DNA from: Streptomyces africanus
Lineage (GTDB): Bacteria; Actinomycetota; Actinomycetes; Streptomycetales; Streptomycetaceae
NCBI RefSeq assembly: GCF_002150735.1
Contig: NZ_MUKA01000001.1
Location: 1-64,000 of the forward strand
Length of the DNA: 64,000 bases
Direction of reading: 5' to 3'
The translations under genes and the position numbers were made by a program. Below the pieces are notes generated by a model that worked only from the letters and a program-made list of their open reading frames with translations, had not been told where the DNA came from and ran no database searches. Every line of letters starts with the position of its first letter. Positions within the stretch are counted from its first letter, which is position 1. Below, in pieces: positions 10,800 through 46,925 of this stretch.

Positions 10800-11010
10800 C
10801 ACCTTGACAGGCCTGAACCCCGGTGTGAATCTTGCACCGATTCGCTGTTGAAGCGCTTGCGCAGTAAGGGGAGCGGGACCGTTGGACGGTGGGAAGTCGA
10901 CGGCTCGCAGGGGCCCGCTCGGTGGCGCGCAGGAGTTCGAATGGTGGAAAATGCAGGATACCCGCCTGCGCGCGGGGTCGAACGCCCTGGTCTGGATGAC
11001 GCCCGAGTGC
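10800..11010 (+). repeat. Promoter plus 5'-gene cassette, copy 1 of 3
   Basis: Holds TTGACA (10804-10809), a 17-nt gap, GAATCT, then AAGCGCTT (10851-10858), an AAGGGGA ribosome site and the TTG start at 10882 with the first codons of the C-domain gene. The same order recurs at 22320-22530, with 47 bp between TTGACA and AAGCGCTT in both, and more weakly at 47130-47355. Confidence 0.8.
10850..10859. promoter_or_regulatory. Operator-like GAAGCGCTTG site
   Basis: A near-palindrome (core AAGCGCTT) 23 bp upstream of the TTG start of the C-domain gene. The same core occurs at 22242-22251 (perfect GAAGCGCTTC), 22374-22383 and 47186-47195 (perfect). All are in promoter regions of this cluster, suggesting a shared regulator. 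Confidence 0.5.
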
Positions 11011-12774
11011 CCCATTGATCTCGGCCAGGCCCGCCGAGTTGTCGAACTTCTGGTCCATCGCCACGAGGCCTTCCGTACGCTGATCGTCCGAGGCCCCGAC
11101 GGCCTGCCCGAGCAGCGGACCGATGCGCCTGCGCTGGACGCGCTCCATGTCCTGGACGAAGCGGCCGACGTCCGCAGAAGCCTCGAACTCGCCATCGCTG
11201 AGACCGAGTTCGACCTGTCCCGGGAGGGCCCGCTGAGAGTCGGGGCGGTGCGCGCAGGGGAGTGGGTGACCGAACTCCTCTTTGTGATCTCCCACTGTGT
11301 CTTCGACGGGCACAGTATCCCGCTGCTCCAGGCGGAGTTCGCGCTCGCCGTCCGCGAGGTTGCGCTTGGCGCGGAGCCGGCAGCGTCCCGCCGTCGGCAC
11401 CAGCCGCTCGACTCTGCCTTAGCCGAGCAGAGCGGACCGCTCGCGCAGCATCGAGCCGCCTCGACCGCCTATTGGGCGAGGGCTGTTCGTGAAATCCCGA
11501 ACCGTATGTTCGTCCCGGCCCAGGACGACCTGATGCACCACTACGGGGCGACGTACCGCACGGACCGCCTGGCACCGCTACTGGCACTCGCCGCGAGGCG
11601 CCATCGGACCACCCCGGCCGTCGTGCACGCCGCCACCGTGCACGCGCTGCTCGCCGCGCTCTCCGCTGCCCCGCACAGTGTCGTGCGTAATCACTTCGTC
11701 GGCCGGACGGATGCCGAGGCGGAGACCATCGGCTGCTTTCACTGCATCCTGCCCGTGGTCGTGGCGACCTCCGACCGGCCCGGTTTCGGCGCGCTCATCG
11801 AACGGGTGGCAATGCAGACGCTGCGCGCTCAGAGCCGTTACCGGATCGGCTATCTGACCCTTCGACAGCTCATTTCGGCGGAAGAACGTCGACGAGGTGC
11901 TGCCATCGCCGATGGCACCATTGTCAATTTCTCCTTCGATGAAGGTTTCGACTCTCTGCAGCGCAGCTCCGAGGAGGAGTTGCTGGCGGCGGCCGCCGGC
12001 GCCGTCGGTGAACTCGAACTGCTGATGGGCCGCAACGAAACCATGCCCGACCACCGAGGGCTGGACTGCTATCTCATGACCCGGATCACCGATGGCGTCA
12101 CGGTGACCTCCGCCACGTTCAACGGCGCGGTGTTCACCGCTCCGCAGATGCGGGCCTTGCTGATAGGCCCGGAACAGCTGCTCGCCGCCCACCTGCAAGG
12201 AGACCTCGACTGGGACGGGATATGCCGGATCGCCCATAGCGGCGACCCCTACGCGCCGGCGCCGCCCGCCGTCCCGGTGGTGGGGGTCGACCTGGTGCTG
12301 CCCGAGCGGGTCGACGAGGCGCTCGTCTCGCACCTCGCGGTGCGGGCCTCCTCCACCACCGTGACCCCCGGCACCGAGGGCACGGTGGGGCTCGAGTGCC
12401 GGGTGATCTGCGAACCTGGGACCGAAGAGCCATTCAACGACGCCGAGTTGAGGGAGCATCTGCTCTGCCAGGTGCGGCCCGGGGCGGCGACGGTGGCCCC
12501 TCATCGCTTCCTGATCGAGGGCCAGGCGAAAGAGGGAGCCGGCCGGACCGAGCCGTCGGTCCTCGCCCTGGTCGCCGCGGTCCTGGAAGTCAACGGGATG
12601 TCCACGGTCGACGAAGGCCAGGGTTACGCGGAGAGCGGCGGCGCGCTGGGCGCCGTCCCCGCGATCATCGATCACCTCGCCGAACAGGGCTACACCGGCC
12701 TCGGGCCGCACGACTTCACCCTGCCGATGTCCTTGCGCAGTCTGGGCCGACGGCTGCACCGCCGTCAGGAGTGA
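10882..12774 (+). CDS. Stand-alone NRPS condensation protein with dead carrier-like tail
   Basis: A 630-residue protein. Residues about 10-450 form a condensation domain: PLGGAQEFEWW opening, ELLVHRHEAFRT, and the active site SHCVFDG, with the catalytic His at 138 and Asp at 142; the first His of HHxxxDG is Ser137. Residues about 550-630 resemble a peptidyl carrier domain, but ESGGALGAV has Ala588 where the phosphopantetheine Ser belongs. It could catalyse amide or ester formation or release using another carrier. The TTG start follows AAGGGGAG at good spacing. Codon 180 (11419-11421) is TTA, so translation should depend on the bldA tRNA. The gene opens the left half of the cluster. Confidence 0.8.
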   Translation: MDGGKSTARRGPLGGAQEFEWWKMQDTRLRAGSNALVWMTPECPIDLGQARRVVELLVHRHEAFRTLIVRGPDGLPEQRTDAPALDALHVLDEAADVRRSLELAIAETEFDLSREGPLRVGAVRAGEWVTELLFVISHCVFDGHSIPLLQAEFALAVREVALGAEPAASRRRHQPLDSALAEQSGPLAQHRAASTAYWARAVREIPNRMFVPAQDDLMHHYGATYRTDRLAPLLALAARRHRTTPAVVHAATVHALLAALSAAPHSVVRNHFVGRTDAEAETIGCFHCILPVVVATSDRPGFGALIERVAMQTLRAQSRYRIGYLTLRQLISAEERRRGAAIADGTIVNFSFDEGFDSLQRSSEEELLAAAAGAVGELELLMGRNETMPDHRGLDCYLMTRITDGVTVTSATFNGAVFTAPQMRALLIGPEQLLAAHLQGDLDWDGICRIAHSGDPYAPAPPAVPVVGVDLVLPERVDEALVSHLAVRASSTTVTPGTEGTVGLECRVICEPGTEEPFNDAELREHLLCQVRPGAATVAPHRFLIEGQAKEGAGRTEPSVLALVAAVLEVNGMSTVDEGQGYAESGGALGAVPAIIDHLAEQGYTGLGPHDFTLPMSLRSLGRRLHRRQE

Positions 12775-13241: not shown

Positions 13242-13514
13242 TCAGGAAGAGGGGCCACGACGGGAATGGAGGTCACGGTACCTGCGCGTGCATTCGTCGA
13301 TGATGTCGGGCAAGGCCCGTCTGCGGAACAGCAGTTCCAGAGGGAAGTCGATCTCCAGGCGCGCTTCCACGCGGGTCATGAATTCGACTGCGGACAGCGA
13401 GGTGCCACCGAGCGCGAAGAAATTTCCCCCGTCGTCGGCGGCCTGCGCTCCGAGTGCTGCGTACCACGCCTCCTCGACGGTGCCGCGGATGTCACCATCC
13501 GTATCAGTCACCAT
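13242..13514 (-). CDS. Free-standing peptidyl carrier protein
   Basis: A 90-residue discrete carrier protein. NFFALGGTSLSAVEF holds the phosphopantetheine attachment Ser39, and helix III (LELLFRRRALPDII) is intact. It needs a phosphopantetheinyl transferase, and an adenylation domain acting in trans to load it. The ATG at 13514 follows AGGGAGAC. It is the last of three minus-strand genes (carrier, methyltransferase, carrier). Confidence 0.9.
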   Translation of the reverse strand: MVTDTDGDIRGTVEEAWYAALGAQAADDGGNFFALGGTSLSAVEFMTRVEARLEIDFPLELLFRRRALPDIIDECTRRYRDLHSRRGPSS

Positions 13515-13552
13515 GTCTCCCTGCCGGCCGAATCCGCCCCTGCGCCTCCTGC

Positions 13553-14203
13553 CTACCTGACACGGCCCTGAGCCCAGACACGGTCGCCGGGGCCTTCGAT
13601 GCGGTCGGTCAGGATGCCGTCCCGGTAGATCTTCTCCTGCTTGATGTCCCCGGTCTCCAGCACCTCGGTCCAGGCGCGGGTGGGGCCCGTCCCCCAAGGC
13701 ACCCAGGGGGTGAGGTCGTCCACGACGATGAGGCTTCCGGGACGGCACAGCACACGGCAGTAGTCGATGTCGGACTTGACGGCGTCGTACTCGTGCCCGC
13801 CGTCGACGAAAGCAAGGTCGAACAGGGACTCACCGTGCTCCGCGATGAATTTTGGCAAGGCGGTGCGGGAGTCCTCCACGATCAGCTGGTGGCGGCCGGG
13901 GAACCGCTGGTCGATGAATTCCTTTCCTATCAATGCCGCCTTGTTCTCCGGCAAATCGAAGGACACCACCTGAACGTTGTCCGAGGCGGACAGGAAAGCG
14001 TGGCTGGAGAAGCCGACATTGAATCCGATCTCGATTACGGTGCGCACCTCGGCCGTATGGACCAGCTCCATGAGATATGTCAGCTGTGGCACACTCGAGG
14101 ACAGCTCGGAGATCGATATGCCGCTGGCCAGTACGTGATCCCAGAGTTCCTTCGTGAAAGTGCGGATCGTGTCGGGCAAGCTAACTGAGTGACGTTCTTC
14201 CAT
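13553..14203 (-). CDS. Class I SAM-dependent methyltransferase
   Basis: A 216-residue protein of the Methyltransf_24-like class. VIEIGFNVGFSSHAFL is the SAM-binding motif I, and DLAFVDGGHEYDAVKSDID is the acidic motif typical of cephalosporin-hydroxylase/O-methyltransferase relatives. It probably methylates a hydroxyl or amine on the product or on a carrier-bound intermediate. The ATG at 14203 was preferred to 14233 because GGAG lies 6 nt before it. Codon use is visibly less GC-rich than the flanking chromosome. Confidence 0.85.
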   Translation of the reverse strand: MEERHSVSLPDTIRTFTKELWDHVLASGISISELSSSVPQLTYLMELVHTAEVRTVIEIGFNVGFSSHAFLSASDNVQVVSFDLPENKAALIGKEFIDQRFPGRHQLIVEDSRTALPKFIAEHGESLFDLAFVDGGHEYDAVKSDIDYCRVLCRPGSLIVVDDLTPWVPWGTGPTRAWTEVLETGDIKQEKIYRDGILTDRIEGPGDRVWAQGRVR

Positions 14204-14362
14204 GTCGGTCTCCAAATCATGGGGAACATGCATGAGTGCGCACGAAGAAATCGATTTGCCGGGCTTCGAGAAGGCGCCTGACGCGAATCAATGGAGGCGG
14301 GCCAGGAAACAGTGCACTATGGAACGTGCCCTGGCAGATACTGTCAACACATGGCCCACACA

Positions 14363-14638
14363 TCAGGCCTGACCGGCTCCTGTGTCCGCCTGCCCGCCGT
14401 GTCTACCCAGGGCTTCGCTGAGGTCTCTGAGTACTGGATTCCTGAAAACAACGCGGACGTCACGGCCTGTCCCGAGTTCCTCGCTCAAGGTACGCGCAAG
14501 CCGGATGGCGATGATGGAGTCGCCACCTACGTCGAAGAAGTTGTCATCGAGGCCGATGTTGGCGTTGCCCGTCAGGGTCCGCACGCTGTCAACCACCAAT
14601 GCGTCCATAGAGTTGCGAAACTCGTTGTCGTTCGTCAT
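14363..14638 (-). CDS. Free-standing acyl/peptidyl carrier protein
   Basis: A 91-residue carrier protein with DDNFFDVGGDSIIAIRL; Ser41 is the phosphopantetheine site. It is the first of the three minus-strand genes and divergent from the KS-AT gene across a 263-bp region carrying a candidate regulator site. The cluster thus has two discrete carriers with no adenylation domain of their own. Confidence 0.9.
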   Translation of the reverse strand: MTNDNEFRNSMDALVVDSVRTLTGNANIGLDDNFFDVGGDSIIAIRLARTLSEELGTGRDVRVVFRNPVLRDLSEALGRHGGQADTGAGQA

Positions 14639-14807
14639 GTTCCCGACGCCCTTCTGCGCGGTTCATCGTCCATCACCTTGATGGGTACGCCATGGCCCCC
14701 CTTGAATCAATCCGTGACTTCGGCGACGCAATGGCGGCAAAGCGTCGAAATGGGGCGCAGGTGTGGCTATCGCGAACCCGCGCTCCCCGTCGGGATAATT
14801 ATTGCGT

Positions 14808-14901: not shown

Positions 14902-17373
14902 ATGTCTGATCGTGTTGCCGTGGTCGGGATGTCGATTCGCGCGGCCAAGGTGCAGAGCGCGGCGGACTTTTGGCGTCTCATGATCAGAGGGCGTTCCGGA
15001 CGGCGTGAAATCGACTCCACGGAATTGAAGCGGCGACGGGTTCCGAGTCGCACATATAAAGATCCAGCATATGTGCCTGTCACATATTCCATGGAAGATT
15101 CCCTCGGGTTCGATCCTCAAGCATTCGGATTCGGTCGATCTGAGGCAGAGCTGACCGACCCACAGCATCGCGCAGTGTTGGAAGCCTGTTACCGGGCAGT
15201 GGAAAGCTCAGGATGTTTCATCGGTTCACTGCCTGATCGCGTCGGGGTATTCCTTGGATCGCGTAAGAGTGGCTACGGTACACAGATCGAATACCTCTCA
15301 GCCGCAGCCGGCAGAAAGGTGGATCTCGCCGGGCTTGCCATAGGGACCGATCCCGACTACCTGTCCAGCAGAATTTCCTATACCTACGGTCTTGCCGGTC
15401 CATCGATGACTGTCCTGACCGCCTGTTCGTCCTCGAGCGTGGCAGTGCATCTTGCCTGCCAGGCAATCCTTGCAGGCGAGTGCGATTCGGCGCTGGCGGG
15501 CGGTGTCGCTTTGGACGTAACGGACGCGGGCTATACGTTCACCGCAGGCGGAATCTACTCGCCACGAGGTCGGTGCGAGCCATACATGGCCTCAGCCGAC
15601 GGTACCGTGGAGGGCAATGGCGTCGCTGTCCTCTTCCTGCGACGGTTGGATGTGGCGTTGGCCGCAGGCAACCCGATCCTTGGCGTCATCGCCGGTACCG
15701 CGGTGAACAATGATGGCCGAGAGCGTGCAGGCTTTACGGCGCCAGGGGTTGCCGGCCAGTCCGAATTGATCGAAGAGGCCCTCGACGTCGCTGAGTTGAG
15801 GGCCTCCAGTATCGGTCTGCTCGAGGGGCACGGTGCGGGCACGAGCATCGGGGACGCACTGGAGATCGATGCCGCGATTCAGGCCTTTCGATCCACTGGA
15901 GCCAGTGCCGACGAGTGTCGGCTCCACTCCGTCAAGGCGAACATCGGGAATCTGACCGCGGCGGCTGGTGCAGCAAGCATCATCGGCTGTCTACTGGCCC
16001 TACAGCATGGACAGATTCCTCCCAACGCTCCCCTGGTGGAAGGAGCCCCGCCAACCGATCTGGGAGGCACACCGTTCAAGCTGGCAGATACGCCGATTGC
16101 CTGGCAGCGTTCGGACCAGGGCCGGTATGCAGCGGTCAGTTCGTTCGGGTTGGGCGGAACAAATGCGCATGTCATCATCGGCGATGCCGAGCGGGAATTG
16201 CGGCTTGCCTCTCGCAAGGGGCGGTACTGGCAACTGCTTCCGCTGTCCGCGGACGACCCGGAACGCCTTTCCGGAACCGTCGATGCTGTGCGTGTGGCAG
16301 TGGACGGAATCTCGGCCGAGGCTCGTCAGGACATCGGCCATACGCTGCGCACCGGTCGCCCGGAGCTCACCACACGCGCAGCTGCGCTGATCCCGGTCGA
16401 CGCCGGGGCGGCCGGCGGGAAGTGGCCGGCGCCAGAGCAGTTCCATACGGTTCCCGAAGTGCCGCCGACACTCGTCTTCGTGCTCCCCGGCGAAGCGGTC
16501 AGAGCGCCGGACGTGGCGCTCGCTCTCTACCGGGCAGAGCCGGCTTTCCGGTCGACCGTGGACGACGGCCTCGAAATCATGAAGCAGGTGCTGGCTCCTG
16601 AGATGTTCGCGGCTGTGCGGGATGCGTTCCTGCACGGTAGGGATCCGGTCGCAACGAATGCGCTTCAGCCGGTGCTGCACCTGCTCGGCCTCGGACAGCA
16701 CGCATTCCTCAGCGACCTGGAAGTCAGGCCGGACTTGCTCATGGGGCACGGCGTCGGCGAGCTAACCGCCGCTCAGCTGAGCGGTGTCCTGTCGTTCGAG
16801 GACGCAGCGCGGGCGGTGTGCTGGCGCAGCCAGGCCATGGCAGACCCGTCGGAACACGCCGAAGTCGTTGTCCGCTTCACCCGTCGGATGCGCGACGTAC
16901 GGCTGAACTCTCCTACTACGCCGACACTTTCATGCGTTTCGGGGACATGGCTGACCAGCGAGGAGGCGTGTGATCCTGGGTATTGGGGAGCGCAACTGGG
17001 TGAGCATGGCCCTTTCGACGAGGTCCTGCGCTCTGTGGTGTCCGAGCACCCCGCGGCCGTGTACCTGCAGCTGAACAGCGGGACGAATCTGCTTCAGGCC
17101 GCTCAGCGTTGGGGAGTGCCTGAAGATGCTGCCGTGGCCCTGGCATCCGATGGAGAAGCCTCAGACAGCTGGTGCTCGCTGCTCCAGGCTGTCGGAACTC
17201 TCTGGGAACAGGGTGTCCGGATCAACTGGCAGGCCTATGCCGAGCGCGATCACGCACTCCGGGTCGACATGGCGCCACGGACCTTCGGGCGGATCCCGTA
17301 CCTGCACCCTTCACTGCTGGAGCATTGCCCCGGGATCGACCCGGCGGAACTTTCGGGAAAGCGGGTCAGCTGA
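14902..17373 (+). CDS. KS-AT polyketide synthase protein with inactivated KS and AT
   Basis: An 823-residue two-domain protein. The ketosynthase (residues 1-430) keeps the nucleophile Cys175 (TACSSSS) and His310 (EGHGAGT), but the third catalytic residue is Asn350 (KANIGN instead of KANIGH). Such ketosynthases usually transfer acyl chains without extending them. The acyltransferase-like part (about 520-720) has GHGVGE, Gly617 replacing the nucleophilic Ser, and lacks the downstream specificity subdomain. There is no carrier domain. It overlaps the NRPS start by one base (TGATG). Codon use is less GC-rich than the chromosome. Role unknown: transfer, scaffold or gatekeeping. Confidence 0.85.
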   Translation: MSDRVAVVGMSIRAAKVQSAADFWRLMIRGRSGRREIDSTELKRRRVPSRTYKDPAYVPVTYSMEDSLGFDPQAFGFGRSEAELTDPQHRAVLEACYRAVESSGCFIGSLPDRVGVFLGSRKSGYGTQIEYLSAAAGRKVDLAGLAIGTDPDYLSSRISYTYGLAGPSMTVLTACSSSSVAVHLACQAILAGECDSALAGGVALDVTDAGYTFTAGGIYSPRGRCEPYMASADGTVEGNGVAVLFLRRLDVALAAGNPILGVIAGTAVNNDGRERAGFTAPGVAGQSELIEEALDVAELRASSIGLLEGHGAGTSIGDALEIDAAIQAFRSTGASADECRLHSVKANIGNLTAAAGAASIIGCLLALQHGQIPPNAPLVEGAPPTDLGGTPFKLADTPIAWQRSDQGRYAAVSSFGLGGTNAHVIIGDAERELRLASRKGRYWQLLPLSADDPERLSGTVDAVRVAVDGISAEARQDIGHTLRTGRPELTTRAAALIPVDAGAAGGKWPAPEQFHTVPEVPPTLVFVLPGEAVRAPDVALALYRAEPAFRSTVDDGLEIMKQVLAPEMFAAVRDAFLHGRDPVATNALQPVLHLLGLGQHAFLSDLEVRPDLLMGHGVGELTAAQLSGVLSFEDAARAVCWRSQAMADPSEHAEVVVRFTRRMRDVRLNSPTTPTLSCVSGTWLTSEEACDPGYWGAQLGEHGPFDEVLRSVVSEHPAAVYLQLNSGTNLLQAAQRWGVPEDAAVALASDGEASDSWCSLLQAVGTLWEQGVRINWQAYAERDHALRVDMAPRTFGRIPYLHPSLLEHCPGIDPAELSGKRVS

Positions 17374-20300
17374 TGACGTTCCAGGTAAGTGCAAACCCGG
17401 CCTCTCTGTCGCAGCAGCGGATTTGGTTTACTGAACAGTTGCTGCCCGGGACCTCCAGGAACAACCTGTGTGTGCAGTTCGTCGTACACGGCAAGCTGGA
17501 TGTTCCGACTCTCGAGCGCGCGGTCAACGACGTTATCGAACGGCATGAGGTCCTGAGAACCAGATTCGGGATCATGGGTGATGCCCTCGTCCAGGATGTG
17601 CTGGACGAGGCCCGAGTTACTGTGCAAAAGCTTGACGCAGCCGATGAAGAATCTGTCTTCGCCAGAGCAGCGGAACTTGCCCGAGAGCCATTCGATCTGA
17701 GCGACGCGCCTTTGGTGCGTGCAGGCCTGGTGCAGGGCAGCAGTGGCACCAGAATTCTGGTGTTCGCGCTTCACCACGCGGTGGCTGACGTCCGGTCTCT
17801 GGACATCTTTCTGCGTGAGGTCATGGAGCTTTACCGAAAGGACAGGGCAGACGGCGTCCCGGACCTGCTTGATCTGCCGCCGACCCGCTTCGTCGACTTC
17901 GCGACATGGCAGCGTGAGTGGGTGAATACGCCGCAGGCCAGCGAACGACGGGCAGCACAGATACGCGAGCTTTCGGGATTCCCTGCTGTGGTCGACCTTC
18001 CGGTCGACCGCCCTCGGCCAGCCGTGCAGACGTTTGCAGTGGCGTCTTCGCACTTTCGTACCTCATCATCTCTGACACGCAAGCTCGAGAAGGTGACGCG
18101 AGAGCACGGAGCAACCCTCCAGACGATGGTTCTGGCTTCGTTCTCGGCAGTTCTGAGTCTCTGGTCGAGGCAGTCACGGCTACTGGTGGCGACCCCGGTA
18201 GCCAACCGCTCGGTTGAAAACGAACGGCTGGTCGGCCCCTTCGAGAACACCCTCGTGATCCCGACTGATATGGCTGGAGACCCATCTTTCGCCGCGTACC
18301 TCGAGCGCGTACGTGACGTGCACCGGAGAGCTGCGTCAGAGAACGTCCCATTCGAGGATATTGTCGACGGTATTGCGCCCGAGCGCAGCCTGTCTTATAA
18401 CCCGCTGGTGCAGGTGATGGCGGCATTCGAAGAAGCCTCCGTGCTTCATACGGAACTTCCCGAGGCCGAATTGGAACTGATCGACAATCAGACGGGAACC
18501 TCACAGTTCGACCTGGTACTCAAAGTCACCCCGCTCGGCGGCGGCCTGGACTGCCGGCTTCAGTATTCGACCGATCTCTTCGACCAGGACACAGCGGAGC
18601 GGTTCATCAGGCATCTGCGGCGGCTGTGGGAGGTTGTCGCCGCCAGACCAGATGCCAGTGTCGGGAGTATCGACCTGGCGGACCTGGAGGAGCGGGCGGT
18701 GCTCTCCACACTGGGCACAGGCCCCACGCGCCCGGTCGATCCCCGCGCGCTCCCTGTCAGGCTGTCCGAGACAGCGCGCAGTCGACCAGACGCCGTTGCG
18801 GTGAAGGCATCCGACGGCAACTACACATACGCGCAGCTCATCGAGCGAGCAGAGACGATCGGTGCGGCACTGACGGCCCGTGGGCTGCGGCCGGGCGATC
18901 TGGTCGGCGTAGCTCTTCCGCGCGGCCGCGACCTGCCGGCAGGTCTGCTCGGCGTCTGGGCTGCAGGAGGATCCTACGTACCACTTGACCCTGCGTACCC
19001 CAGAGCCCGGCTGGAGCACATGACGCAGGACGCAGGCATCAAGGTCCTGCTGAGCACTTGCGACCTCGCGGACCGCATCCCTGTGCCCACAGATACTGAA
19101 GTGCTGGTGTTGGACGAACCTGCTTTCCCGCTCCCAGCCGGGAAGTCGACCCCCGTGACATGCGGCGACCACGTGGCCTACGTGATTTACACTTCCGGCT
19201 CGACCGGCCGCCCCAAGGGCGTGATGGTCAACCATAAAAGCCTCGGGAACCTTCTGGACGACTTCATGTCCGAGTCCGGGTTCGGTACGCGCGACCGGAT
19301 GCTTGCACTGACATCCTTGTCCTTCGACATCGCAGGGCTGGAACTCTGGCTCCCGCTGCTGGCCGGAGGAACACTGGTGATCGGGCCGCCAGGTGTCGGC
19401 GGCGACCCGGAGCGGCTGCACAAACTTCTCTCCGACGAGAAAGTCACGGTGGTGCAGGCCACTCCGGCGACCTGGAAGCTCTACGCCTCGTCCCACCGCG
19501 TCGCGCCGCCTGCGCTACGGCAGATATGGAGTGGCGGCGAGCACTTGCCGCACTCGCTCGCCCGGGCGCTGACCGCGATGGGGCCCGAAGTGCACAACCT
19601 TTATGGACCGACGGAGACCACCATATGGTCGACGCGGGCAGTGCTGCGCCGGCTCGACAGCGTTACCGGAATCGGGCGGCCCATTTCCAATACTCGCCTG
19701 TTCGTCGTCAATGCCGACGGCCTGCAGGTCCCCATGGGGATACCTGGAGAGTTGTGCATCGGCGGTGCGGGGCTGGCGCTGGGCTACCTCGGCCGCCCCG
19801 ATCTGACCGCACAGCGGTTTGTCGATATCGAAGGGCTGCCCGTCTACCGCACCGGAGACCTCGTCAGGTGGCGTTCCGACGGGAATCTCGAGTATCTCGG
19901 GCGTCTCGACGACCAGGTGAAGATCCGTGGGCACCGAGTGGAACCCGGGGAAGTCGATGCCGTGGCCCGAGCCTGCCCTGACGTCCGGGACGCCAGCACG
20001 CTGGCCGTGACGACCTCCGCAGGAGAGGAGCAGTTGGTCACCTTCGTGACGCCGGGGAAGGGCGCGGATCAAGCCGATAACACCACAGAGGACTGGCGCG
20101 CCATCTGGGAGAACGCCTATGCCGAAGGCGAACCTGCCGAAGAAGATGACTTCAATCTGAAGGGCTGGCAGAGCAGCTATTCCAAACAGCCACTGCCAGA
20201 GGCGGAGATGCGGGACTGGGTGACGCAGACCGTTGACAGAATCGCTGGAACGGGCGCTCGCACCTTCGCGGAGATCGGCTGCGGCACCGGATTGCTGCTG

Positions 20301-24299: not shown

Positions 24300-24523
24300 T
24301 GCACTCTCCTGGAAATTTCTAGGAATTCCATCTGAGGCCAATGGAATGTTTTTTATTGCGTACCAGGCCTGACGAGTCACCGTCCGGGTAAGTCTTATTG
24401 TTTCGCGGCGGATCGGGCGAAGCAAGCCATCGGGCTATTGATTGCGTGGTTGTGCAGGCGTTTGCATTGCTCGTGGCAGATCCGGTCAGCCCGTTCCGGC
24501 CGATGGCAAGAACACGCTTCATC

Positions 24524-26843: not shown

Positions 26844-26892
26844 ACCCCTGCTATGGGGGCCGGGTGGTGCATATGAACGGAGTGTGATTTCA

Positions 26893-27168
26893 ATGAACAA
26901 GCGGGACACGGTCAAGGCCGCACTGCTCGAGATCGTGAACGAGGTGGCCGGCCCGGTCGAGCACCTGGACGAGGACCAGCTCCTTGTCGATCAGCTCGGT
27001 CTTGAATCGCTGCACCTCGCGCGGCTCGTCGCCGTACTGGAGATGGAGCTGGACACCGACCCGTTCTCCGACACATTGCCCATCACCAGTGTGCGCACGG
27101 TCGGTGACCTGCTGCAGGCGTACGACCCGGTTGTCCTGCCTCGCCTCGGTGCCGGCGAGCCGTCATGA
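26893..27168 (+). CDS. Discrete acyl carrier protein
   Basis: A 91-residue ACP. LLVDQLGLESLHLARLVAVLE holds the attachment Ser39. It sits between the SDR and the first PKS gene, consistent with carrying the starter from the acyl-AMP ligase. GGAGTG lies 8 nt before the ATG. The stop overlaps the PKS start by 4 nt. Confidence 0.92.
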   Translation: MNKRDTVKAALLEIVNEVAGPVEHLDEDQLLVDQLGLESLHLARLVAVLEMELDTDPFSDTLPITSVRTVGDLLQAYDPVVLPRLGAGEPS

Positions 27169-38498: not shown

Positions 38499-41400
38499 CC
38501 GTCCACAGCAGCCCGAGGGGTCCGCTTGAGCCGGATGCGGGGACAACCCGCACGTCCGGTTCTGAGGGGGCCGAGGTGCGGCGATGCAATCCGGCTACCC
38601 GACTGTTCGACCACGAGGAGAGCGCCGTGGAACCCCTGCTCCAGGAAATTGCCGCAATCGTCGGTGACTACTTCGACGTTCAGCCCGAACAGCTGTACCC
38701 CGACGTCGTGCTCACGGACCTCGGGGACTCGATGTCGCTGCTCGGCATGGTGCAGCGTTTGGAGGACCGCTATGGCTGCAAAGTGCCGCTTCGGCAACTC
38801 TTCACCGACGTCCAGACTCTGCCTGATCTAGCTGCATATCTTCTCGCACACGCATCGACGGAGAAGCTGCCGCGAGGAGAGGCCGTATCGCCCTCCACCA
38901 CTGCCTCCTCCACCACTGCCTCCACCACCGATGCCGTAGCCAGCTCGGCGCCGGCCCCGGTCTTGCCGCAGTCGATCGACAGCCGGCCAACGGTCACAGC
39001 AGCGCCATCAACCGAGTTGTCGATGGACATGTCCTTGTCGCCAGGCGCCTCGACGGCCGTGCAGGCCCTGATCAAGGAACAGCTCATGGTCATGCAGCGT
39101 CAGCTCCAGCTGCTGGCGGGCAGCGAGCCGGTCTCCGCGGCTGACCCGGCCATCGGGTCCGGGGCCGGAGCCGCTGCTTCGCCGCCTGTGGCGCTCTCCC
39201 CGGCGCGGCCGGTTTCGGCGAACATGGTGGTGCCACTCGCGCCCGGCGCCCGGAGCAGCGCGATCAGCCCCGTGGAGACGGCAGAGCGCGCCCGCTATCT
39301 GAAGAAACTCGGTGACCGCCTCAGTACTCGGACCAAGGGCTCGAAGGAATTTGCCCAACGGTTCCGGACGATGGTCGCGGACAGCCGGTCCACTGTCGGC
39401 TTTCGCCCCTCGATCAAGGAGATGCTGTACCCGATCGTCGCCGAACGCGGGCAGGGCTCACGGCTGTGGGACATCGATGGAAACGAGTATGTCGACCTCA
39501 CCCTGGGATACGGTGTCCACCTCCTCGGTCATAATCCGCCGGCTGTCATGTCGGCTATTCGTGAGCGGCTGGACGTCGGTTTCAGCCTCGGGCCGCGCAC
39601 TCAACTGGTCGAGGAAGTTGCCGCCGGAGTACTCGAGCTCACCGGCATGGAGCGCGTTGCCTTCCTCAACAGCGGCACAGAAGCGGTCATGACTGCGGTT
39701 CGGCTTGCACGGGCAGCAACCGGCCGCGACAAGATAGTGGTCTTTTCCACCGCATACCACGGTCACTTCGACAGTGTGCTCGCTGTGCCGACCCATGAGA
39801 ACGGCGTATTCGGCACCCGGCCGCTCGCACCCGGCATCTCCCCGCACGCGGTGGAAAACGTGTACGTACTCGAGTTCGGCACGGACGAGGCGCTCGACTT
39901 CATCAACAAGCACGGCGCGGACCTCGCAGCAGTTCTGACCGAGCCGGTGACCCTGCGCACTCCTGGGGTCCAGAAGCCTGATTTCCTGCGCACGGTCCGG
40001 GAGATCACAAGGGCACACGGCACGAAACTCATCTTCGACGAGATGGTGACAGGTTTCCGTTGTCATCCGGCAGGCGTTCAGGGGCTGTACGGCATCGAGG
40101 CCGACCTGGCCACCTACGGCAAGATTGTAGGAGGCGGCATGCCGATCGGCGTGATTGCCGGACGCGGTGGCGTCATGGACTCAATCGACGGCGGCATCTG
40201 GAACTTCGGTGACGATACCGGCCCGAGGGTGGAATCCACCTTCTTCGGCGGCACGTTCAACCAGCATCCACTCACCATGGCGACGGCCAAGGCGGTCCTT
40301 GACCACCTCCGTGCAGAGGGACCTGATCTGCAACGGAACCTCGACCGCAAGACTGCGATGTTCACGGACCAGCTGAACGCCGACTTCCGCGAGCTCGAAG
40401 TGCCGATCGAAGCCCACAGGTTCTCCTCGATCTTCAAGTTCGAGCACCAGGCGAACATGGATCCGTTCTATTTCAATCTGCTCGACCGTGGTGTGTTCGT
40501 CTGGGAGCTGCGCAACTTTTTCCTCTCCACCGCGCATGAGCAGGCCGATCTTGACCATATCCGCACCGCGGTGCGTGAATCGGTCGAAGAATTGCGGGAC
40601 CACGGCATGCTCGGCAGTAGCCGTACTGAACCAGCGGGTCCTCTGCCCCGTGAGGCAGCGCCTCGCAGCACCCACGCGCAGCGGCAACTACGGGCCCTCG
40701 ACCAGGGCGGCGTGCCCGCCTTCGAGATGTCTGTCGGGTTCTGGCTGGACGGCTCACTCAACCGCGTTGCACTGCGTGCCGCCGTGCAGGACCTGGTCGC
40801 CCGCCACGAGACTCTGAGGACCACGTTCGGTTCGGACGGGGACACGCTTGTCGTCCATCCCGTGCGGGAAATGCCTCTGAGCGACGTCCTGACCGAGTAC
40901 ACCTGTGGGGACGAGGATGACCTCAGCCGCTTCCTGCGGACCTGGGCCGAACGACCGCTCGACCCGGTCGACGGGGAGGTGTTCCGCGCCGCTGTGGTGG
41001 AGGTCAACCCGCAACGGCACCTGCTGCTGGTAACGGTGCATCACGCGGCAGTGGATGGCTGGTCCTACAGCGTCCTGCTCGATGACCTCGCCGCGATGTA
41101 CAACGCAAGGTGCCGCGGCATGAGTGCCGAACTGCCCCCGGCCGTGCAGTTCCGAGATTATCTCACCTGGCACGAGCGAGTCACCGCCGGCCCCACCGCT
41201 GCCAAGCACCGTGACTTCTGGCATTCTCTCCTGAAGGATGTTCCCGCGCCGGAATTGCCGTCGTCGGGACGGCCGAGCCAATTCCCTTACCGCGCGGTAC
41301 GCCACCGTATTCTCCTCGACCCCGAGTTCTGCGGGCAGATGCGCGATGCCGCCCGCAATGAGGGGGTCACGGTCTTCGCCTATCTGGTGGCGGCCTGGGG

Positions 41401-41968
41401 GGCCTTGCTGCAGCGGCTGACGGGGCAGGACAAAATTCTGGTACCGGTCGCGTCCGCCCGGCGGCCGCAGGAACTGGACCGGACTGTCGGATATTGCTCG
41501 AATCTGCTGCCGTTGGTCGTTCGCCGACCTGCGGACACGTTGGTCGCGGACTACGTGGGTGAGGTGTTGATGCAATTGATCAGCGGGCTCGAGCGCCAGG
41601 ACTACCCCTTCGCGGATCTGATCACGGAATTCGCGCCGCCGGGGGCGGGCTTGCGAAGCAAGTTGTTCACAACGGCAATGTCGTTTTACCGCCAGGTTGT
41701 GGTACCCCCCATGGACGGACTCACGGTCTCAGAAGCCGACTCGTTGCCGATCACACACACCGGAAATCCCATGGCATTGAACATCGTGGATAGTGCGGAC
41801 GGGTTCCGGTGTGAATTCGATGCCGCAGTCGATGTCGTCGATCCCGATCTCGTCGAGCGCCTTCCGCGGTACTACCGAAACCTGCTCAGCGCTATGGTCG
41901 CCAACAATGAGCGCCCGTTGGCAGAGCTGGACCACGAAGGCGAGGAAGGCCTGGACGCGAGCTACTGA
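38495..41968 (+). CDS. ACP-aminotransferase-condensation protein
   Basis: A 1157-residue hybrid. An ACP (about 40-120) has Ser79 in DLGDSMSLL. A Ser/Thr/Ala-rich linker (about 130-270) includes a small tandem repeat. A class III PLP aminotransferase (about 300-710) follows, with FDEMVTGFR and the Schiff-base Lys543 in YGKIVGGGMPIG, as in the beta-aminotransferases of iturin/mycosubtilin and microcystin assembly lines. A C domain (about 725-1150) has canonical HHAAVDG (His849, His850, Asp854). It probably converts a beta-keto acyl-ACP to a beta-amino acyl-ACP and passes it on. There is no A or PCP domain after the C domain; an IS relic follows. Confidence 0.92.
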   Translation: MTVHSSPRGPLEPDAGTTRTSGSEGAEVRRCNPATRLFDHEESAVEPLLQEIAAIVGDYFDVQPEQLYPDVVLTDLGDSMSLLGMVQRLEDRYGCKVPLRQLFTDVQTLPDLAAYLLAHASTEKLPRGEAVSPSTTASSTTASTTDAVASSAPAPVLPQSIDSRPTVTAAPSTELSMDMSLSPGASTAVQALIKEQLMVMQRQLQLLAGSEPVSAADPAIGSGAGAAASPPVALSPARPVSANMVVPLAPGARSSAISPVETAERARYLKKLGDRLSTRTKGSKEFAQRFRTMVADSRSTVGFRPSIKEMLYPIVAERGQGSRLWDIDGNEYVDLTLGYGVHLLGHNPPAVMSAIRERLDVGFSLGPRTQLVEEVAAGVLELTGMERVAFLNSGTEAVMTAVRLARAATGRDKIVVFSTAYHGHFDSVLAVPTHENGVFGTRPLAPGISPHAVENVYVLEFGTDEALDFINKHGADLAAVLTEPVTLRTPGVQKPDFLRTVREITRAHGTKLIFDEMVTGFRCHPAGVQGLYGIEADLATYGKIVGGGMPIGVIAGRGGVMDSIDGGIWNFGDDTGPRVESTFFGGTFNQHPLTMATAKAVLDHLRAEGPDLQRNLDRKTAMFTDQLNADFRELEVPIEAHRFSSIFKFEHQANMDPFYFNLLDRGVFVWELRNFFLSTAHEQADLDHIRTAVRESVEELRDHGMLGSSRTEPAGPLPREAAPRSTHAQRQLRALDQGGVPAFEMSVGFWLDGSLNRVALRAAVQDLVARHETLRTTFGSDGDTLVVHPVREMPLSDVLTEYTCGDEDDLSRFLRTWAERPLDPVDGEVFRAAVVEVNPQRHLLLVTVHHAAVDGWSYSVLLDDLAAMYNARCRGMSAELPPAVQFRDYLTWHERVTAGPTAAKHRDFWHSLLKDVPAPELPSSGRPSQFPYRAVRHRILLDPEFCGQMRDAARNEGVTVFAYLVAAWGALLQRLTGQDKILVPVASARRPQELDRTVGYCSNLLPLVVRRPADTLVADYVGEVLMQLISGLERQDYPFADLITEFAPPGAGLRSKLFTTAMSFYRQVVVPPMDGLTVSEADSLPITHTGNPMALNIVDSADGFRCEFDAAVDVVDPDLVERLPRYYRNLLSAMVANNERPLAELDHEGEEGLDASY

Positions 41969-42490: not shown

Positions 42491-42520
42491 TGGTTCCTGC
42501 TCCATCGGTGTGCCGGTCGG

Positions 42521-44347
42521 TCATGCGGAGTAGGCATCGGCCTGGATGTCGTAGAGATCGGCGTATCGGCCTCCCACGATGCTGACCAGTTCGTCATGGG
42601 TGCCCGCCTCGATCAGTCGGCCCTTGTCGAGGGTGAGGATGAGGTCCGCTCCGGTGGCGGTCGAGAACCGGTGGGTGACGATCACCGTGATGGCGCCTGT
42701 CCGCCCGGCAACCTCCCGGGCACGGGCGATGTAGCGCTCAAAGATCTGCTGCTCGCTCGGGGCGTCGAGAGATGCCGTGGGTTCGTCCAGCATCAACAGC
42801 AGGGGACCGGGGCGCATCGACGCCCGGGCGAGGGCGACCTTCTGCCACTGTCCCTCGGACAGATCGACGCCCCCGAAGTCCCGGCTGAGCTGTGTCTCCA
42901 GTCCGTCGGGAAGCGCCCCGACCAGCTGCTCGGCGTCGGCTGCCGCCACGGCCCGACCGACTCTTTGGACATCCTGGGCGTGCGGCAGGTCGCCCAGGCC
43001 GACGCTCTGCCCGAAGGTCGTACGGAAGCGGCCGAAGTCCTGGAACGCCGCACTCGACCTCGCACGCCAGCCCTCCGTGTCCAGGGTGGCGAGGTCCACG
43101 CCGTCGACGAGAACTCGGCCACCGCTGGGCTTGTAGAACTTACAGAGGAGCTTGACCAGTGTCGTCTTGCCCGAGCCGTACTCGCCGACCAGCGCGACCA
43201 CCGAGCCCGCCGGCAGATGGACACTGATGTCGTGCAGGGCGGGGCGTCGAGAGCCGGGATACCGGTAGGTGACGTTCTCGAAGGTGATTCCCTCGCGCAG
43301 GACCTGGGGTGAGGATTTGGTTCCGGCCGCGTCGGACCGTGCGGAGGCGGTGTAGTCGCGCATCCACAAGTAGGGCTCGACGAGCCGTCCTGCCCGGGCG
43401 ACGTTCGCTGTGAAGTGCACGCCGTTGAACACCGACTGGCGCAGGCTGCTCGCCACGGTGATCGCCAGCACGATGTCTCCGGCCGAGCCGTGCCCACGCC
43501 GCACCTGAACGACGATCAGAGCCAGACCGGCGCCGAAGCCGAGCGTGAAGATGGTCCAGCCGCCGAGCTTCCAGGCCGCCGCGACAAGTCGCGCCCGGTA
43601 GCGGCCGGCCATGGCTGTGTCCCACGCGGCGGCCTGTCTGCGGGCCAGCTCGGTTCCCGCCCCCGACACGCGGATCTCCTTGCCCGCGGCTCCGTCCGTA
43701 CCGAGGTCGAAGAGTCGGCGCTGGAGACGGAAGGGTTCGGCCGTGGCGGTTTCGGCCCGGATGATGGCGTTGCTGCCCTTCTGGTCGAACCAGAGCGGCA
43801 GCGCCGCGCAGACGAGCAGCAACAGCAGCCAGGGGTTGATCGTGCCCAGCAGGAAGAGCGTGACGACCAGTTCGATGACGACGAAGAGGACGCCGACCGC
43901 CTGCCACAGGCTGAGCACGAGTTCCCACGCGGAATTGCGTACTACGGTCAGCCGGTCGAGGTAGTCCGTGCGCTCCAGGTGTTCCAGACCTTCGAGGGTC
44001 GCGATGTCGCGGTAGATACCGGGATTCACATCGAGCACCGCGACCTTGCCGATGAGGATGCCGGCGGTATTGGCGTCGAGTGCCCCCAGCACCATCAACA
44101 TGGTGCCGGCGAGTCCCGCCCCGGCCGCGCAGGCCACAGCGGGCCAGACCTCTCCGCGAAGCGTCGCGTCCACCGCGCCGCGCAGGGCCAGGGCGTTGCC
44201 TGCGACGGAGGCCACCATCAGGGCGGGAATGACGAACTGCAGGGACGTCAGCCACGGCGAACGGCGCCAGGACAGCCGTAGCAGTTCGTACCAGAGGGAG
44301 AAGTACCGCCGACGGCGAATCGGGTGCTCACTGGCCAGCTCGGTCAT
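42521..44347 (-). CDS. ABC exporter, fused permease-ATPase (second half-subunit)
   Basis: A 608-residue half-transporter: six predicted membrane helices (about 30-320), then an ATPase with Walker A GEYGSGKTT, signature LSEGQ, Walker B LLLMLDEP and H-loop His (VTHR). It overlaps the upstream ABC gene by 4 nt (ATGA), so the pair probably forms a heterodimer. The position at the cluster end suggests export of the product, giving self-protection. Confidence 0.92.
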   Translation of the reverse strand: MTELASEHPIRRRRYFSLWYELLRLSWRRSPWLTSLQFVIPALMVASVAGNALALRGAVDATLRGEVWPAVACAAGAGLAGTMLMVLGALDANTAGILIGKVAVLDVNPGIYRDIATLEGLEHLERTDYLDRLTVVRNSAWELVLSLWQAVGVLFVVIELVVTLFLLGTINPWLLLLLVCAALPLWFDQKGSNAIIRAETATAEPFRLQRRLFDLGTDGAAGKEIRVSGAGTELARRQAAAWDTAMAGRYRARLVAAAWKLGGWTIFTLGFGAGLALIVVQVRRGHGSAGDIVLAITVASSLRQSVFNGVHFTANVARAGRLVEPYLWMRDYTASARSDAAGTKSSPQVLREGITFENVTYRYPGSRRPALHDISVHLPAGSVVALVGEYGSGKTTLVKLLCKFYKPSGGRVLVDGVDLATLDTEGWRARSSAAFQDFGRFRTTFGQSVGLGDLPHAQDVQRVGRAVAAADAEQLVGALPDGLETQLSRDFGGVDLSEGQWQKVALARASMRPGPLLLMLDEPTASLDAPSEQQIFERYIARAREVAGRTGAITVIVTHRFSTATGADLILTLDKGRLIEAGTHDELVSIVGGRYADLYDIQADAYSA

Positions 44348-46200
44348 AGGTACTGGTCCTCCTCCAGCCGGTCCTCGAAGCCGCGACTGAACCGCGCGGC
44401 CTGGATCGTGAACATGGCCGCGTACCGGCCGTCGGCTGCCATGAGTTCGTCGTGCGTGCCCGTCTCCGTGATACGGCCGTCCTCCAACAGGACGATCCGG
44501 TCGGCCTGTCGCACGGTGGACAGCCGGTGCGAGATCAGGACGACGCTCGCGTCCGACCTGCGCGCGCCGAGCCTTGCGAAGACGTCGACCTCCGTCCGTA
44601 CGTCGAGGTGGGCGGTGGGCTCGTCAAGAACCAGAATCCTCGCTCCCCGGCGCACCGCGTAGAGGACGCGGGCCAGGACGACCTGCTGCCACTGCCCGCC
44701 CGAAAGGTCGACGCCCCCCTTCGCGGCGCGGGTCAGCGGGGTCTCCCAGCCGGACGGCAGACCGGCCAGCACCGCTTCCAGCCCCGCTTCCCGGGAGGCG
44801 GCCTCGGCGTCCGCCCGTTCCGCTCCGCCCGTCCTGCCGATGACCACGTTGCCGTGGACGGACAGGGGGTACCGCACGAAGTCCTGGAAGGCCACTGCGA
44901 TCCGGCGGCGCCAGGCGTCCGGGGCAAGCGTGGCGATGTTCCGCCCGTCCGCGGTGATGGCCCCGCCTGTCGGCAGGTAGAGCCCGCAGAGCAGTTTGAT
45001 CAGGGTCGACTTGCCCGCTCCGTTGAGTCCGACGACGGCCAGCAGTTCGCCCGGCCGGATCTCCAGATCCAGACGGTCCAGAACCTGGCGTTCTGTCTTC
45101 GGATAGGCGAAGGAGACTTGTTCGAACCGGATGAGCGGTGGACGCTCGCGGTCCTCGGGTTCCAGTACCCCCCGGCCGTCGGTGCTGGGCACCGCCGCTC
45201 CCTCCGGGGCGAGCAGCTCGCGCAGCTCCCGCGTGGCGCGCAGGCACTCGGCGGAAGCTACCGCGCTCCTGAGTTCCTCGCTCCAGCCAAGCGCCTGGAA
45301 CACCGTCCATCCGGTGACGAGTACCGCCGTTTCCACCGCGATGGTCGTCTCCCCCCGCACCGCGCTGTGCGCCACCATGGCGTACACGGCGCACAGCGGG
45401 ATGCCGACGAGCAGAAGCTGGCTCCACTCGGCGCGCAGCATCCGCCCGATCGCCGCCCAGATGGGTTTCTCCATGGCCAGGCTGTGCCGCTGAATCTGCC
45501 CGACCGACCAACCACCCAGTCCGAAGACACGGATGTCCTTGCCCTCGGCCGGGGAGATCGCCGAGTCCTGCCACATCTGCGCCTTCGCGCCCTCCACCGT
45601 GCCGGAGCGCCACGTCCGGACGTACCGCAGCGCCTGTCTCTGCCGCAGCGCCCAATTGATCAGAGCGGGCACGAGCACTACGGGGACGAGCCACCAGGCA
45701 TACCCCGCGAGGACCACACAGGATCCGGCGACGCCGAGGAAGCCCGTGAGGATGCGGAGGACGGCCACGGCGCCCTCACCCGGAGTGTGTTCGGTCCAGT
45801 TGTCAGGATCCGCCTTGGCCGCGCGGATCAGGGTGCGCGCCTGCGGGGTCTCCAACTGGTCGATCGTCGGGGTGGACGAAACCAGCTCGATGATCGACGC
45901 CCTGTGTACGCCGTCGATGGTGGCCTGGACCAGGAAGCCCAGTGGCTCCAGAACGGTGTCCATGACGTGCCCGAGCAGGAGGACGGTGACAAACGCCGCC
46001 AGCGGGGCCAGGGCCGCGGTCAGTGGTGGCAGCGTCGTACCCCCCGTCTCGAAGCGCCGTACCAATACCGCCAGAACGACGGCTGTCGCGGATGGGAGCA
46101 GACTGCTCAGCCCCATCAGCACGGCCAGAAGCCAGCTGTGGGACCGCTTGGCGCAGCTGAGAGTCCGCAACAAGCGGAGCCCGTCGGCAAGGGTGGTCAC
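44344..46200 (-). CDS. ABC exporter, fused permease-ATPase (first half-subunit)
   Basis: A 618-residue half-transporter: N-terminal membrane domain (about 20-310), then an ATPase with Walker A GLNGAGKST, signature LSGGQ, Walker B ILVLDEP and H-loop His (ISHR). The GTG at 46200 overlaps the stop of the adenylation-domain relic upstream, and its stop overlaps the next ABC gene. This suggests one transcript starting near 47.0 kb. Confidence 0.92.
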   Translation of the reverse strand: MTTLADGLRLLRTLSCAKRSHSWLLAVLMGLSSLLPSATAVVLAVLVRRFETGGTTLPPLTAALAPLAAFVTVLLLGHVMDTVLEPLGFLVQATIDGVHRASIIELVSSTPTIDQLETPQARTLIRAAKADPDNWTEHTPGEGAVAVLRILTGFLGVAGSCVVLAGYAWWLVPVVLVPALINWALRQRQALRYVRTWRSGTVEGAKAQMWQDSAISPAEGKDIRVFGLGGWSVGQIQRHSLAMEKPIWAAIGRMLRAEWSQLLLVGIPLCAVYAMVAHSAVRGETTIAVETAVLVTGWTVFQALGWSEELRSAVASAECLRATRELRELLAPEGAAVPSTDGRGVLEPEDRERPPLIRFEQVSFAYPKTERQVLDRLDLEIRPGELLAVVGLNGAGKSTLIKLLCGLYLPTGGAITADGRNIATLAPDAWRRRIAVAFQDFVRYPLSVHGNVVIGRTGGAERADAEAASREAGLEAVLAGLPSGWETPLTRAAKGGVDLSGGQWQQVVLARVLYAVRRGARILVLDEPTAHLDVRTEVDVFARLGARRSDASVVLISHRLSTVRQADRIVLLEDGRITETGTHDELMAADGRYAAMFTIQAARFSRGFEDRLEEDQYL

Positions 46201-46925
46201 GTGGTCCTCTCTCCGTGCGGCCCGGTCATGGCCGAGGTGGTAGTCCGGCCGCGCGGGCGGGCCATGTCGCCGCGGTACAGACGGGGATACGGGGCCGCTG
46301 CGCGGGTCTCGGCAGGAAGCAGACCCGGTCGAGGTGAAACCATGTGCCGCTGTGGCTGCATGCCGACGTATCCGGCCGCGAGGGCCGGGCCACCGATGAA
46401 GAGTTCGCCGATGCCCGTGTGCGGGTCGACGTGCTTGACGACCCGGTGACGATGCGGCGGGGGACGGCCGATCGGGACACGCTCGCCGTCGGACAGCGAG
46501 GATCCGAACTCACCGCCGAGGGATACGGAACCGTCCGTGGCACACCGGTCGATGACGAGCGTGCCGCCCGCCAGGAGAATCGGATAGATCTCCTCGCCAG
46601 TGGTGTCCCGGACAAGCGAGGCGAAGCTCAGCACGCGGTCCCGCGCGGTCACGGCGAAGACGTCGATAGGGGACGACACGGATGCCATGAGCGCGCCGTG
46701 CACCATCACCCCCGTGGGCGTGCCGGTGGCGTCCAGGGCGGCCAGGAAGGCGACGACGCACCAGTACGAGCGTCCCACAGCGACGCCCACACGGTCACCC
46801 GGTCGCACACCCCGGTGGTGCAACTCCAGGGCCAGCCATTCCGTGTCCGACCTTGTGGGTGTGAGAGACGCCGTCGACTCCAGTCGCACGATGACTGATC
46901 GGCCGTTCGCGGGCGAATCAGTCAC
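46197..46925 (-). pseudogene. Shrunken adenylation-domain relic (still an open frame)
   Basis: A 242-codon open frame made of A-domain pieces in the right order with in-frame gaps: ELHHRGVRPGDRVGVAVGRS (A1-A2), TPTGVMVHGAL (remnant of A3), LLAGGTLVI (A4 region), GELFIGGPALAAGYVG (A6) and YRGDMARP (A7, missing one residue). A5, A8 and A10 are absent, so it cannot adenylate. It overlaps the ABC start by 4 nt and may survive only because the exporter genes are coupled to it. An intact full-length ancestor would have been over twice as long. Confidence 0.7.

What the first reader, a model, noticed from the sequence alone, without database searches (positions are those of the whole stretch)
10882..46925. 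Hybrid NRPS-PKS cluster predicted to make a beta-amino acyl/sarcosine compound, not matched to a known product
Seen: acyl-AMP ligase, SDR, discrete ACP, one complete PKS module, C-PCP, a KS-only PKS module, ACP-aminotransferase-C, C-A-NMT-PCP, two free carriers, two methyltransferases, a stand-alone C protein, an LmbU-type regulator and an exporter pair. Known: aminotransferase domains after a KS make beta-amino acyl units in iturin- and microcystin-type lines. The split architecture, with only one intact amino-acid adenylation domain, fits no cluster I can name.
Basis: partly seen in the sequence, partly recalled or inferred. Interest (0 to 1): 0.85.

Follow-up and report, generated by a model that had tools for sequence, protein, structure and literature searches.

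The report
Pared-down peptide-polyketide assembly line cluster
A 35-kb Streptomyces gene cluster encodes a mixed peptide-polyketide assembly line in which several catalytic parts are missing or have lost their active sites, although its core genes stay open in the three strains compared; relatives occur in several actinobacterial genera, and it is predicted to make a small acyl-beta-amino-acid-sarcosine compound of unknown identity.

Summary
The gene inventory is real, and the core (about 10.88-46.2 kb) is conserved in S. muensis and Streptomyces CB02058 with unshared flanks. The 'split' layout is explained by domain loss. The C-PCP protein is a C-A-PCP module whose A domain is intact in two relatives, degenerate in one and deleted here. 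The 'KS-only' module is KS-AT0-KR0-ACP0. Tested domains, dead ones included, show dN/dS of 0.06-0.43 in the two closest pairs. A-less C-PCP proteins are named from seven genera and keep their motifs, which argues for an old, used state rather than decay. A beta-amino acyl unit (MycA-type aminotransferase) and sarcosine (glycine-like A code read by eye, inserted N-methyltransferase) remain predictions. Who loads the A-less carrier, what the KS0 protein does and how release happens are unknown. Eight literature searches named no product; MIBiG was not available. New variant of a known kind; moderate interest.

The parts
10882..12774 (+). Stand-alone condensation-domain protein (C1); HxxxDG kept; C-terminal tail resembles a dead carrier by eye
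   Evidence: PF00668 82 bits; motif same in window, S. muensis and CB02058; tail by eye only, Pfam negative
13242..13511 (-). Free carrier protein (PCP-a), serine kept
   Evidence: PF00550 E 2e-9
13553..14233 (-). SAM methyltransferase MT1 (no hit in the CB02058 locus)
   Evidence: O-methyltransferase matches E 2e-5; synteny
14363..14638 (-). Free carrier protein (PCP-b), serine kept
   Evidence: PF00550 E 2e-13
14902..17373 (+). KS0-AT0: ketosynthase with Cys kept and a catalytic His replaced by Asn; AT with Ser to Gly and small subdomain missing; no ACP
17373..21704 (+). C-A-NMT-PCP, glycine-like A code, predicted to add sarcosine
   Evidence: (code read in the S. muensis orthologue; same motifs in the window)
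22572..23306 (+). LmbU-family regulator
   Evidence: NF038070 210 bits, cut-off 125
23568..24425 (-). SAM methyltransferase MT2
   Evidence: weak PDB methyltransferase matches, best E 8e-4; conserved
24745..26100 (+). Carboxylic-acid AMP ligase (AL), predicted starter activation
   Evidence: PF00501 and CoA-ligase models
26097..26843 (+). FabG-like SDR
   Evidence: TIGR01830 184 bits
26827..27168 (+). Discrete ACP (start probably about 26890)
   Evidence: PF00550 26 bits, cut-off 20.8
27165..32519 (+). Complete PKS module KS-AT-DH-KR-ACP, checked motifs intact; AT motif HAFH (malonyl type, recalled)
32516..34366 (+). C-PCP: NRPS module with the adenylation domain deleted in frame
34359..38498 (+). 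KS-AT0-KR0-ACP0: only the KS keeps its active site
38495..41968 (+). ACP-aminotransferase-C, checked motifs kept
42521..44347 (-). ABC exporter half 1
   Evidence: PF00005; conserved
44344..46200 (-). ABC exporter half 2; right edge of the conserved cluster
   Evidence: PF00005; conserved
46197..46925 (-). Adenylation-domain remnant (pseudogene), largely missing in S. muensis and CB02058

Best explanation
The window holds a conserved hybrid NRPS-PKS cluster in which one module lacks its adenylation domain and two acyltransferases, one ketosynthase, a ketoreductase and a carrier have lost active-site residues, while the tested domains show low dN/dS, and it is predicted to make an N-acyl beta-amino-acyl sarcosine compound. 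Inferred route, none of it assayed: the AMP ligase would load an unknown carboxylic acid on the discrete ACP (the SDR would act there); the PKS module would add a malonyl unit and leave an enoyl thioester; the C domain of the A-less C-PCP would join it to an amino acid loaded in trans (glycine from the only intact A domain of the cluster is the simplest choice); the surviving KS of the next protein would add a malonyl unit on the ACP of the following protein; the aminotransferase would turn the beta-keto group into an amine; and C-A-NMT-PCP would add N-methylglycine. Release would be by a condensation domain or the KS0 protein, since no thioesterase was found in the cluster, and the ABC pair would export the product.
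For: Domain content and active-site motifs. Core set conserved with unshared flanks in S. muensis and CB02058. A domain of the C-PCP module intact in G162 and G347, degenerate in G307, absent in the window and its three close relatives. C and carrier motifs kept in the A-less family. His-less KSs form one group beside KS-AT-ACP proteins with intact motifs. dN/dS 0.06-0.43 for every domain tested against S. muensis and CB02058. AMT nearest to MycA. AT subdomain with the catalytic His missing in both AT0s. No thioesterase family in the Pfam scans, and no GHSxG-type motif between 10 and 50 kb besides the active AT in a narrow motif scan.
Against: No expression or chemical data. One A pseudogene shows that part of the locus is decaying. 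The genome has 16 A-domain matches outside the window and 8 AT matches outside it that could act in trans, so the amino acid on the C-PCP is open. The specificity code was read by eye against a recalled glycine code. dN/dS was pairwise and not tested against a null; linkers and tails are faster, up to 1.45 in the spacer at the A deletion and 1.10 in the C-PCP tail. Loss of activity is read from motifs only.
Confidence: 0.6

Rival explanations
1. The cluster is decaying and makes nothing; lost domains and the A pseudogene are stages of gene death.
For: A pseudogene at 46197-46925, no thioesterase found, several dead domains.
Against: No internal stop in the ten genes compared in three or four strains, dN/dS mostly 0.06-0.35 per domain; the A-less C-PCP and the KS0 protein recur across genera with the same residues kept or lost.
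Confidence: 0.13
2. The A-less carrier is loaded by an adenylation domain encoded elsewhere in the genome, so the residue before the beta-amino unit is not glycine.
For: 16 A-domain matches outside the window, one in a 517-codon frame though below the model's cut-off; [quoted passage not shown] NRRL WC-3618 carries an A-PCP gene near its version.
Against: No second A domain was found in the cluster of the window, S. muensis or CB02058 apart from the remnant.
Confidence: 0.35
3. The KS0-AT0 protein is not a relic but a non-elongating acyltransferase that passes the chain to the neighbouring C-A-NMT-PCP or releases it as an amide.
For: Cysteine kept in 27 of 27 His-less rows that reach it, window included; dN/dS 0.12-0.16 in the KS; predicted model confident overall (pLDDT 88.5); its gene overlaps the C-A-NMT-PCP gene by one base, and an intact KS-AT-ACP relative also precedes C-A proteins; a PKS with a KS, CalA3, is deposited with an 'amidation product' (title only).
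Against: No carrier is attached and no activity is known; it could be purely structural.
Confidence: 0.35
4. The product is already known and its cluster is simply not in the libraries I could search.
For: The family is present in several genera, so a product may have been isolated; MIBiG was not available.
Against: Eight answered literature searches named no match; two were strain names and two returned no paper at all, so this is weak evidence.
Confidence: 0.25

Closest known systems
Mycosubtilin synthetase MycA (iturin family)
   Same: Class III aminotransferase after a KS and a carrier; best solved relative, E 1e-131
   Different: Here KS, ACP-AMT-C and the A domain are on separate proteins, the malonyl unit must be supplied in trans, and no A-PCP follows the AMT in cis
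CP-PLP1-C protein D6KDX7 of Streptomyces sp. e14 (PMC3870968, passages seen)
   Same: Carrier-aminotransferase-C architecture
   Different: No product named in the passage; its sequence was not compared here
WS9326A synthetase of Streptomyces calvus (PMC7539972, abstract seen)
   Same: Adenylation supplied in trans
   Different: There the trans A enzymes are characterised; here the only intact A found in the cluster sits inside another module
PDB relatives: 7zma (first), 4wky, 4oqj (OzmQ KS1 of oxazolomycin), ClbI and ClbC of colibactin
   Same: Best solved sequence relatives of the KS at 34359 and, for ClbI, of the fold of KS0-AT0
   Different: Other pathways; domain-level similarity only. 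That 4wky is OzmN is recalled
Relatives G162, G347, G307 and Streptomyces NRRL WC-3618
   Same: Share all or part of the PKS, C-(A)-PCP, KS and ACP-AMT-C core
   Different: Keep more domains (A, KR, ACP, second KS) or carry extra NRPS, carbamoyltransferase or sugar-type genes

Membership tests
MycA-type beta-aminating aminotransferase domain | Class III aminotransferase with PLP lysine | tested here: met
   PF00202 E 4e-51; Lys of GK(I/V)xGGG kept in 43 of 43 rows (role of the Lys recalled); MycA best PDB hit
MycA-type beta-aminating aminotransferase domain | Acts on a beta-ketoacyl carrier made by the preceding KS | not testable with these tools
   Gene order and dead KR fit; no assay
Iturin-type single-protein synthetase | AL-ACP-KS-AT-ACP-AMT-C-A-PCP in one protein (recalled) | tested here: not met
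   Domains spread over separate proteins
N-methylating interrupted A domain (sarcosine module) | Methyltransferase inserted before the A-domain C-terminal part | tested here: met
   MT at 1034-1135, AMP-binding_C at 1349-1386 of the scanned frame
N-methylating interrupted A domain (sarcosine module) | Glycine specificity | tested here: inconclusive
   DILQWGLIWK (S. muensis; the script misplaced one position in the window) against recalled DILQLGLIWK, 9 of 10
A-less NRPS module fed in trans | C and carrier motifs kept, A absent | tested here: met
   HHxxCD in 30 of 30 rows; carrier Ser in 27 of 30, the other three (556, 422 and 402 aa) being partial or without the motif
A-less NRPS module fed in trans | Identified trans A enzyme | tested here: not met
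   No separate A gene conserved in the cluster; 16 A-domain matches elsewhere in the genome
LmbU regulators | Score above NF038070 cut-off | tested here: met
   210 bits against 125
Known MIBiG cluster | Same gene set with known product | not testable with these tools
   MIBiG not available; eight literature searches without a match

The most novel reading that the evidence does not exclude
A family of assembly lines spread over six or more actinobacterial genera has evolved by subtraction: one glycine adenylation domain feeds two carriers, an A-less module and a sarcosine module; a ketosynthase stripped of its decarboxylation histidine, its acyltransferase activity and its carrier has become a dedicated acyl-transfer or amide-forming enzyme; and the product is an N-acyl-3,4-diaminobutanoyl-sarcosine, a scaffold of which I know no described example.
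Probability: 0.17. Interest if true: 0.75.

Novelty: new variant of a known kind. Interest (0 to 1): 0.52.

Why it matters
Assembly-line engineers want to know which domains can be removed without killing a synthetase. Here relatives show one module with its A domain intact, degenerate and excised, and two acyltransferases that lost the same subdomain, while the rest of the line evolves slowly. That is a natural deletion series that can be copied and tested. The cluster itself is a candidate for an undescribed compound.

Tried and rejected
Negamycin was considered because it joins a beta-amino acid to an N-methylated glycine-like part (recalled); rejected, since its cluster has genes for beta-lysine formation and an N-N bond-forming heme enzyme (PMC12154649, passages). 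The Nature 2026 depsipeptide paper (PMC13372681, passages) has no occurrence of aminotransferase or sarcosine. Searches for the strain names CB02058 and S. muensis and for combinations of aminotransferase, sarcosine, beta-amino acid, condensation domain and oxazolomycin named no product for this gene set; two searches returned no paper. One search, on A-less loading, gave a precedent only. Plasmid searches gave no close relatives: every record was below 60% identity, though 47 of 61 records for the KS0 protein covered 80% or more of it. A structure model of C-PCP was too poor to use (pLDDT 66). The tail of C1 looked like a dead carrier by eye, but Pfam gave nothing. My hand reading of the A-domain code changed at positions 278, 299 and 301; the motif script gave DILQ for S. 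muensis but took a wrong anchor in the window, CB02058 and NRRL WC-3618 (DILI).

Full report
Observation. Motif inspection (roles of the residues recalled) shows which domains could work. Motifs kept: KS-AT-DH-KR-ACP at 27165; C and carrier at 32516; KS at 34359; ACP, aminotransferase and C at 38495; C-A-NMT-PCP at 17373; the C motif at 10882. Lost: a KS histidine and the AT serine at 14902; AT, KR (no catalytic Tyr) and ACP (Ser to Glu) at 34359. In CB02058 the C domain of C-A-NMT-PCP has HL instead of HH.

Borders and relatives. A scan of species genomes with the ACP-AMT-C protein confirmed 4 relatives among 30 pattern matches: three Streptomyces (S. muensis DSM 103493, CB02058, NRRL WC-3618) and a distant Crocosphaera. 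The three Streptomyces contigs were read further. The 15 genes queried from C1 to the second ABC gene have matches at 82-97% identity in S. muensis (15 of 15) and CB02058 (14 of 15, MT1 without a hit); genes on either side in the window have no syntenic match there. The S. muensis contig begins just left of C1, so its left flank is barely tested. The free carriers were not among the queries; both are seen by eye in CB02058 and one in S. muensis. NRRL WC-3618 has a rearranged version with extra NRPS and sugar-type genes and no hit to C1, MT1 or the ABC pair. The KS0-AT0 protein occurred in 3 of 295 Streptomyces genomes at E 1e-150 (own, and by coordinates S. muensis and CB02058), in 1 of 394 genomes of the class at E 1e-200 (own) and in 3 of 394 of the family at E 1e-200 (own, CB02058, and G902, which has an intact KS-AT-ACP relative). 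These draws overlap. The aminotransferase domain was found in 6 of 392 Streptomyces genomes at E 1e-150.

Loss of the A domain. In G162 and G347 the protein matching C-PCP is C-A-PCP with intact motifs; in G307 the A domain is present but its core motifs are broken. In the window, S. muensis, CB02058 and NRRL WC-3618 it is gone, and about 37 residues lie between C and carrier. A protein search gave 29 homologues at E 1e-80, with names from Streptomyces, Kitasatospora, Lentzea, Amycolatopsis, Actinoplanes, Dactylosporangium and Actinospica. That search takes only proteins up to 1.75 times the query's length, so full C-A-PCP forms could not appear and their relative frequency is unknown. The condensation motif is kept in 30 of 30 rows (window included) and the carrier serine in 27 of 30; the other three are partial or lack the motif.

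Pared PKS proteins. The protein at 34359 is KS-AT0-KR0-ACP0. In G347 its relative keeps the KR Tyr and ACP Ser by eye and is followed by a second KS before the aminotransferase; in G162 the KR and ACP have lost them as here; in NRRL WC-3618 the KR is deleted; in some relatives KS, ACP, AMT and C are one protein (for example P0012 and P0022). The protein at 14902 has Asn for a catalytic His. Of 45 aligned rows, 28 share the change (27 Asn, 1 Ser); 27 of these have Gly at the AT serine and one has a gap. In a FastTree of 47 KS sequences (one gappy row of 48 dropped), the 27 His-less ones form one group without a His-bearing member, local support 0.79. The nearest relatives outside, P0147 and P0149-P0154, keep the His and the AT Ser. 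In G902 an intact KS-AT-ACP gene precedes C-A proteins like the one here. Both AT0s lack the same stretch with the catalytic His. The KS0 protein is predicted with confidence (mean pLDDT 88.5; blocks over the AT0 part mostly 70-96) and resembles KS-AT didomains, ClbI first.

Selection. Pairwise Nei-Gojobori ratios of the window against S. muensis, CB02058 and NRRL WC-3618, for ten of the genes (C1 and ABC1 only in the first two pairs): aminotransferase 0.065-0.107, KS0 0.12-0.16, C of C-PCP 0.25-0.27, its carrier 0.12-0.23, AT0 of KS0 0.16-0.33, AT0 at 34359 0.29-0.42, KR0 0.25 and 0.42 (NRRL WC-3618, where the KR is deleted, gives a meaningless 0.87 on 97 codons), ACP0 0.28 and 0.22, ACP of the AMT protein 0.25-0.43. 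Linkers and tails are faster: the spacer at the A deletion 0.29, 1.45 and 1.13; the C-PCP tail 1.10, 0.35 and 0.25; the KS0 linker 0.32-0.47; the tail at 34359 0.49 and 0.68. Even the dead domains seem to be kept, which argues for structural roles and against decay; no formal test was made.

Co-occurrence. Taking the length of the longest contig as a label (a proxy), all three hallmark proteins share a contig in 5 cases besides the genomes read directly: a Kitasatospora, a Lentzea, S. gelaticus, Actinoplanes couchii and one unnamed (the first two lists are capped at 120 rows).

Mechanism. Shown: the domain set, motifs, conservation and losses. Inferred: starter activation by the AMP ligase, one malonyl extension to an enoyl thioester, an amino acid on the A-less carrier, a second malonyl extension with the AT in trans, beta-amination and sarcosine addition. 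Unknown: the starter acid, who loads the A-less carrier, the task of KS0, of the free carriers and of C1, and release. The genome has 16 A-domain matches at E 1e-60 outside the window, two of the 17 in all being below the model's cut-off, and 8 AT matches outside the window, 10 in all.

Prior knowledge. MycA-type beta-amination and A domains acting in trans are known (PMC3870968, passages; PMC7539972, abstract). A CP-PLP-C protein from Streptomyces sp. e14 was listed in 2013. The statement that I found no product in print for this gene set rests only, in an open-access library.

Noticed in passing
24745-27168: AMP ligase and SDR relatives (46-49% identity) lie together in four other Streptomyces loci without the aminotransferase core (G209, G098, G365, G124), with the ACP (42-46%) in the first three, so this may be a portable starter cassette. 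The AL had 15 hits in 392 genomes; 4 of the 10 more distant ones were looked at.
   Followed up: partly
46197-46925: Broken adenylation-domain remnant between the ABC gene and its conserved upstream region; mostly missing in S. muensis and CB02058.
   Followed up: partly
14902-17373 and 34359-38498: Two acyltransferases in different proteins lack the same stretch with the catalytic His; the intact G902 relative of the first suggests the losses were parallel.
   Followed up: partly
L041-L043 (G162): The relative carries a carbamoyltransferase, a flavin-dependent oxidoreductase-like protein and a synthetase with three C, two A and two carrier domains next to the shared core, so the family probably makes varied products.
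   Followed up: no
L020 (NRRL WC-3618, about 12.0-18.2 kb of the contig): Genes that look by their first residues like a sugar phosphatase, epimerase, kinase and glycosyltransferase lie inside the relative's cluster (by eye).
   Followed up: no
3878-6661: Frame with a microbial PARG catalytic domain in the left flank, E 8e-53.
   Followed up: no
58454-63511: Right flank holds an SDR, a phytanoyl-CoA dioxygenase-like protein, a LacI regulator and a permease component, possibly a catabolic operon.
   Followed up: no
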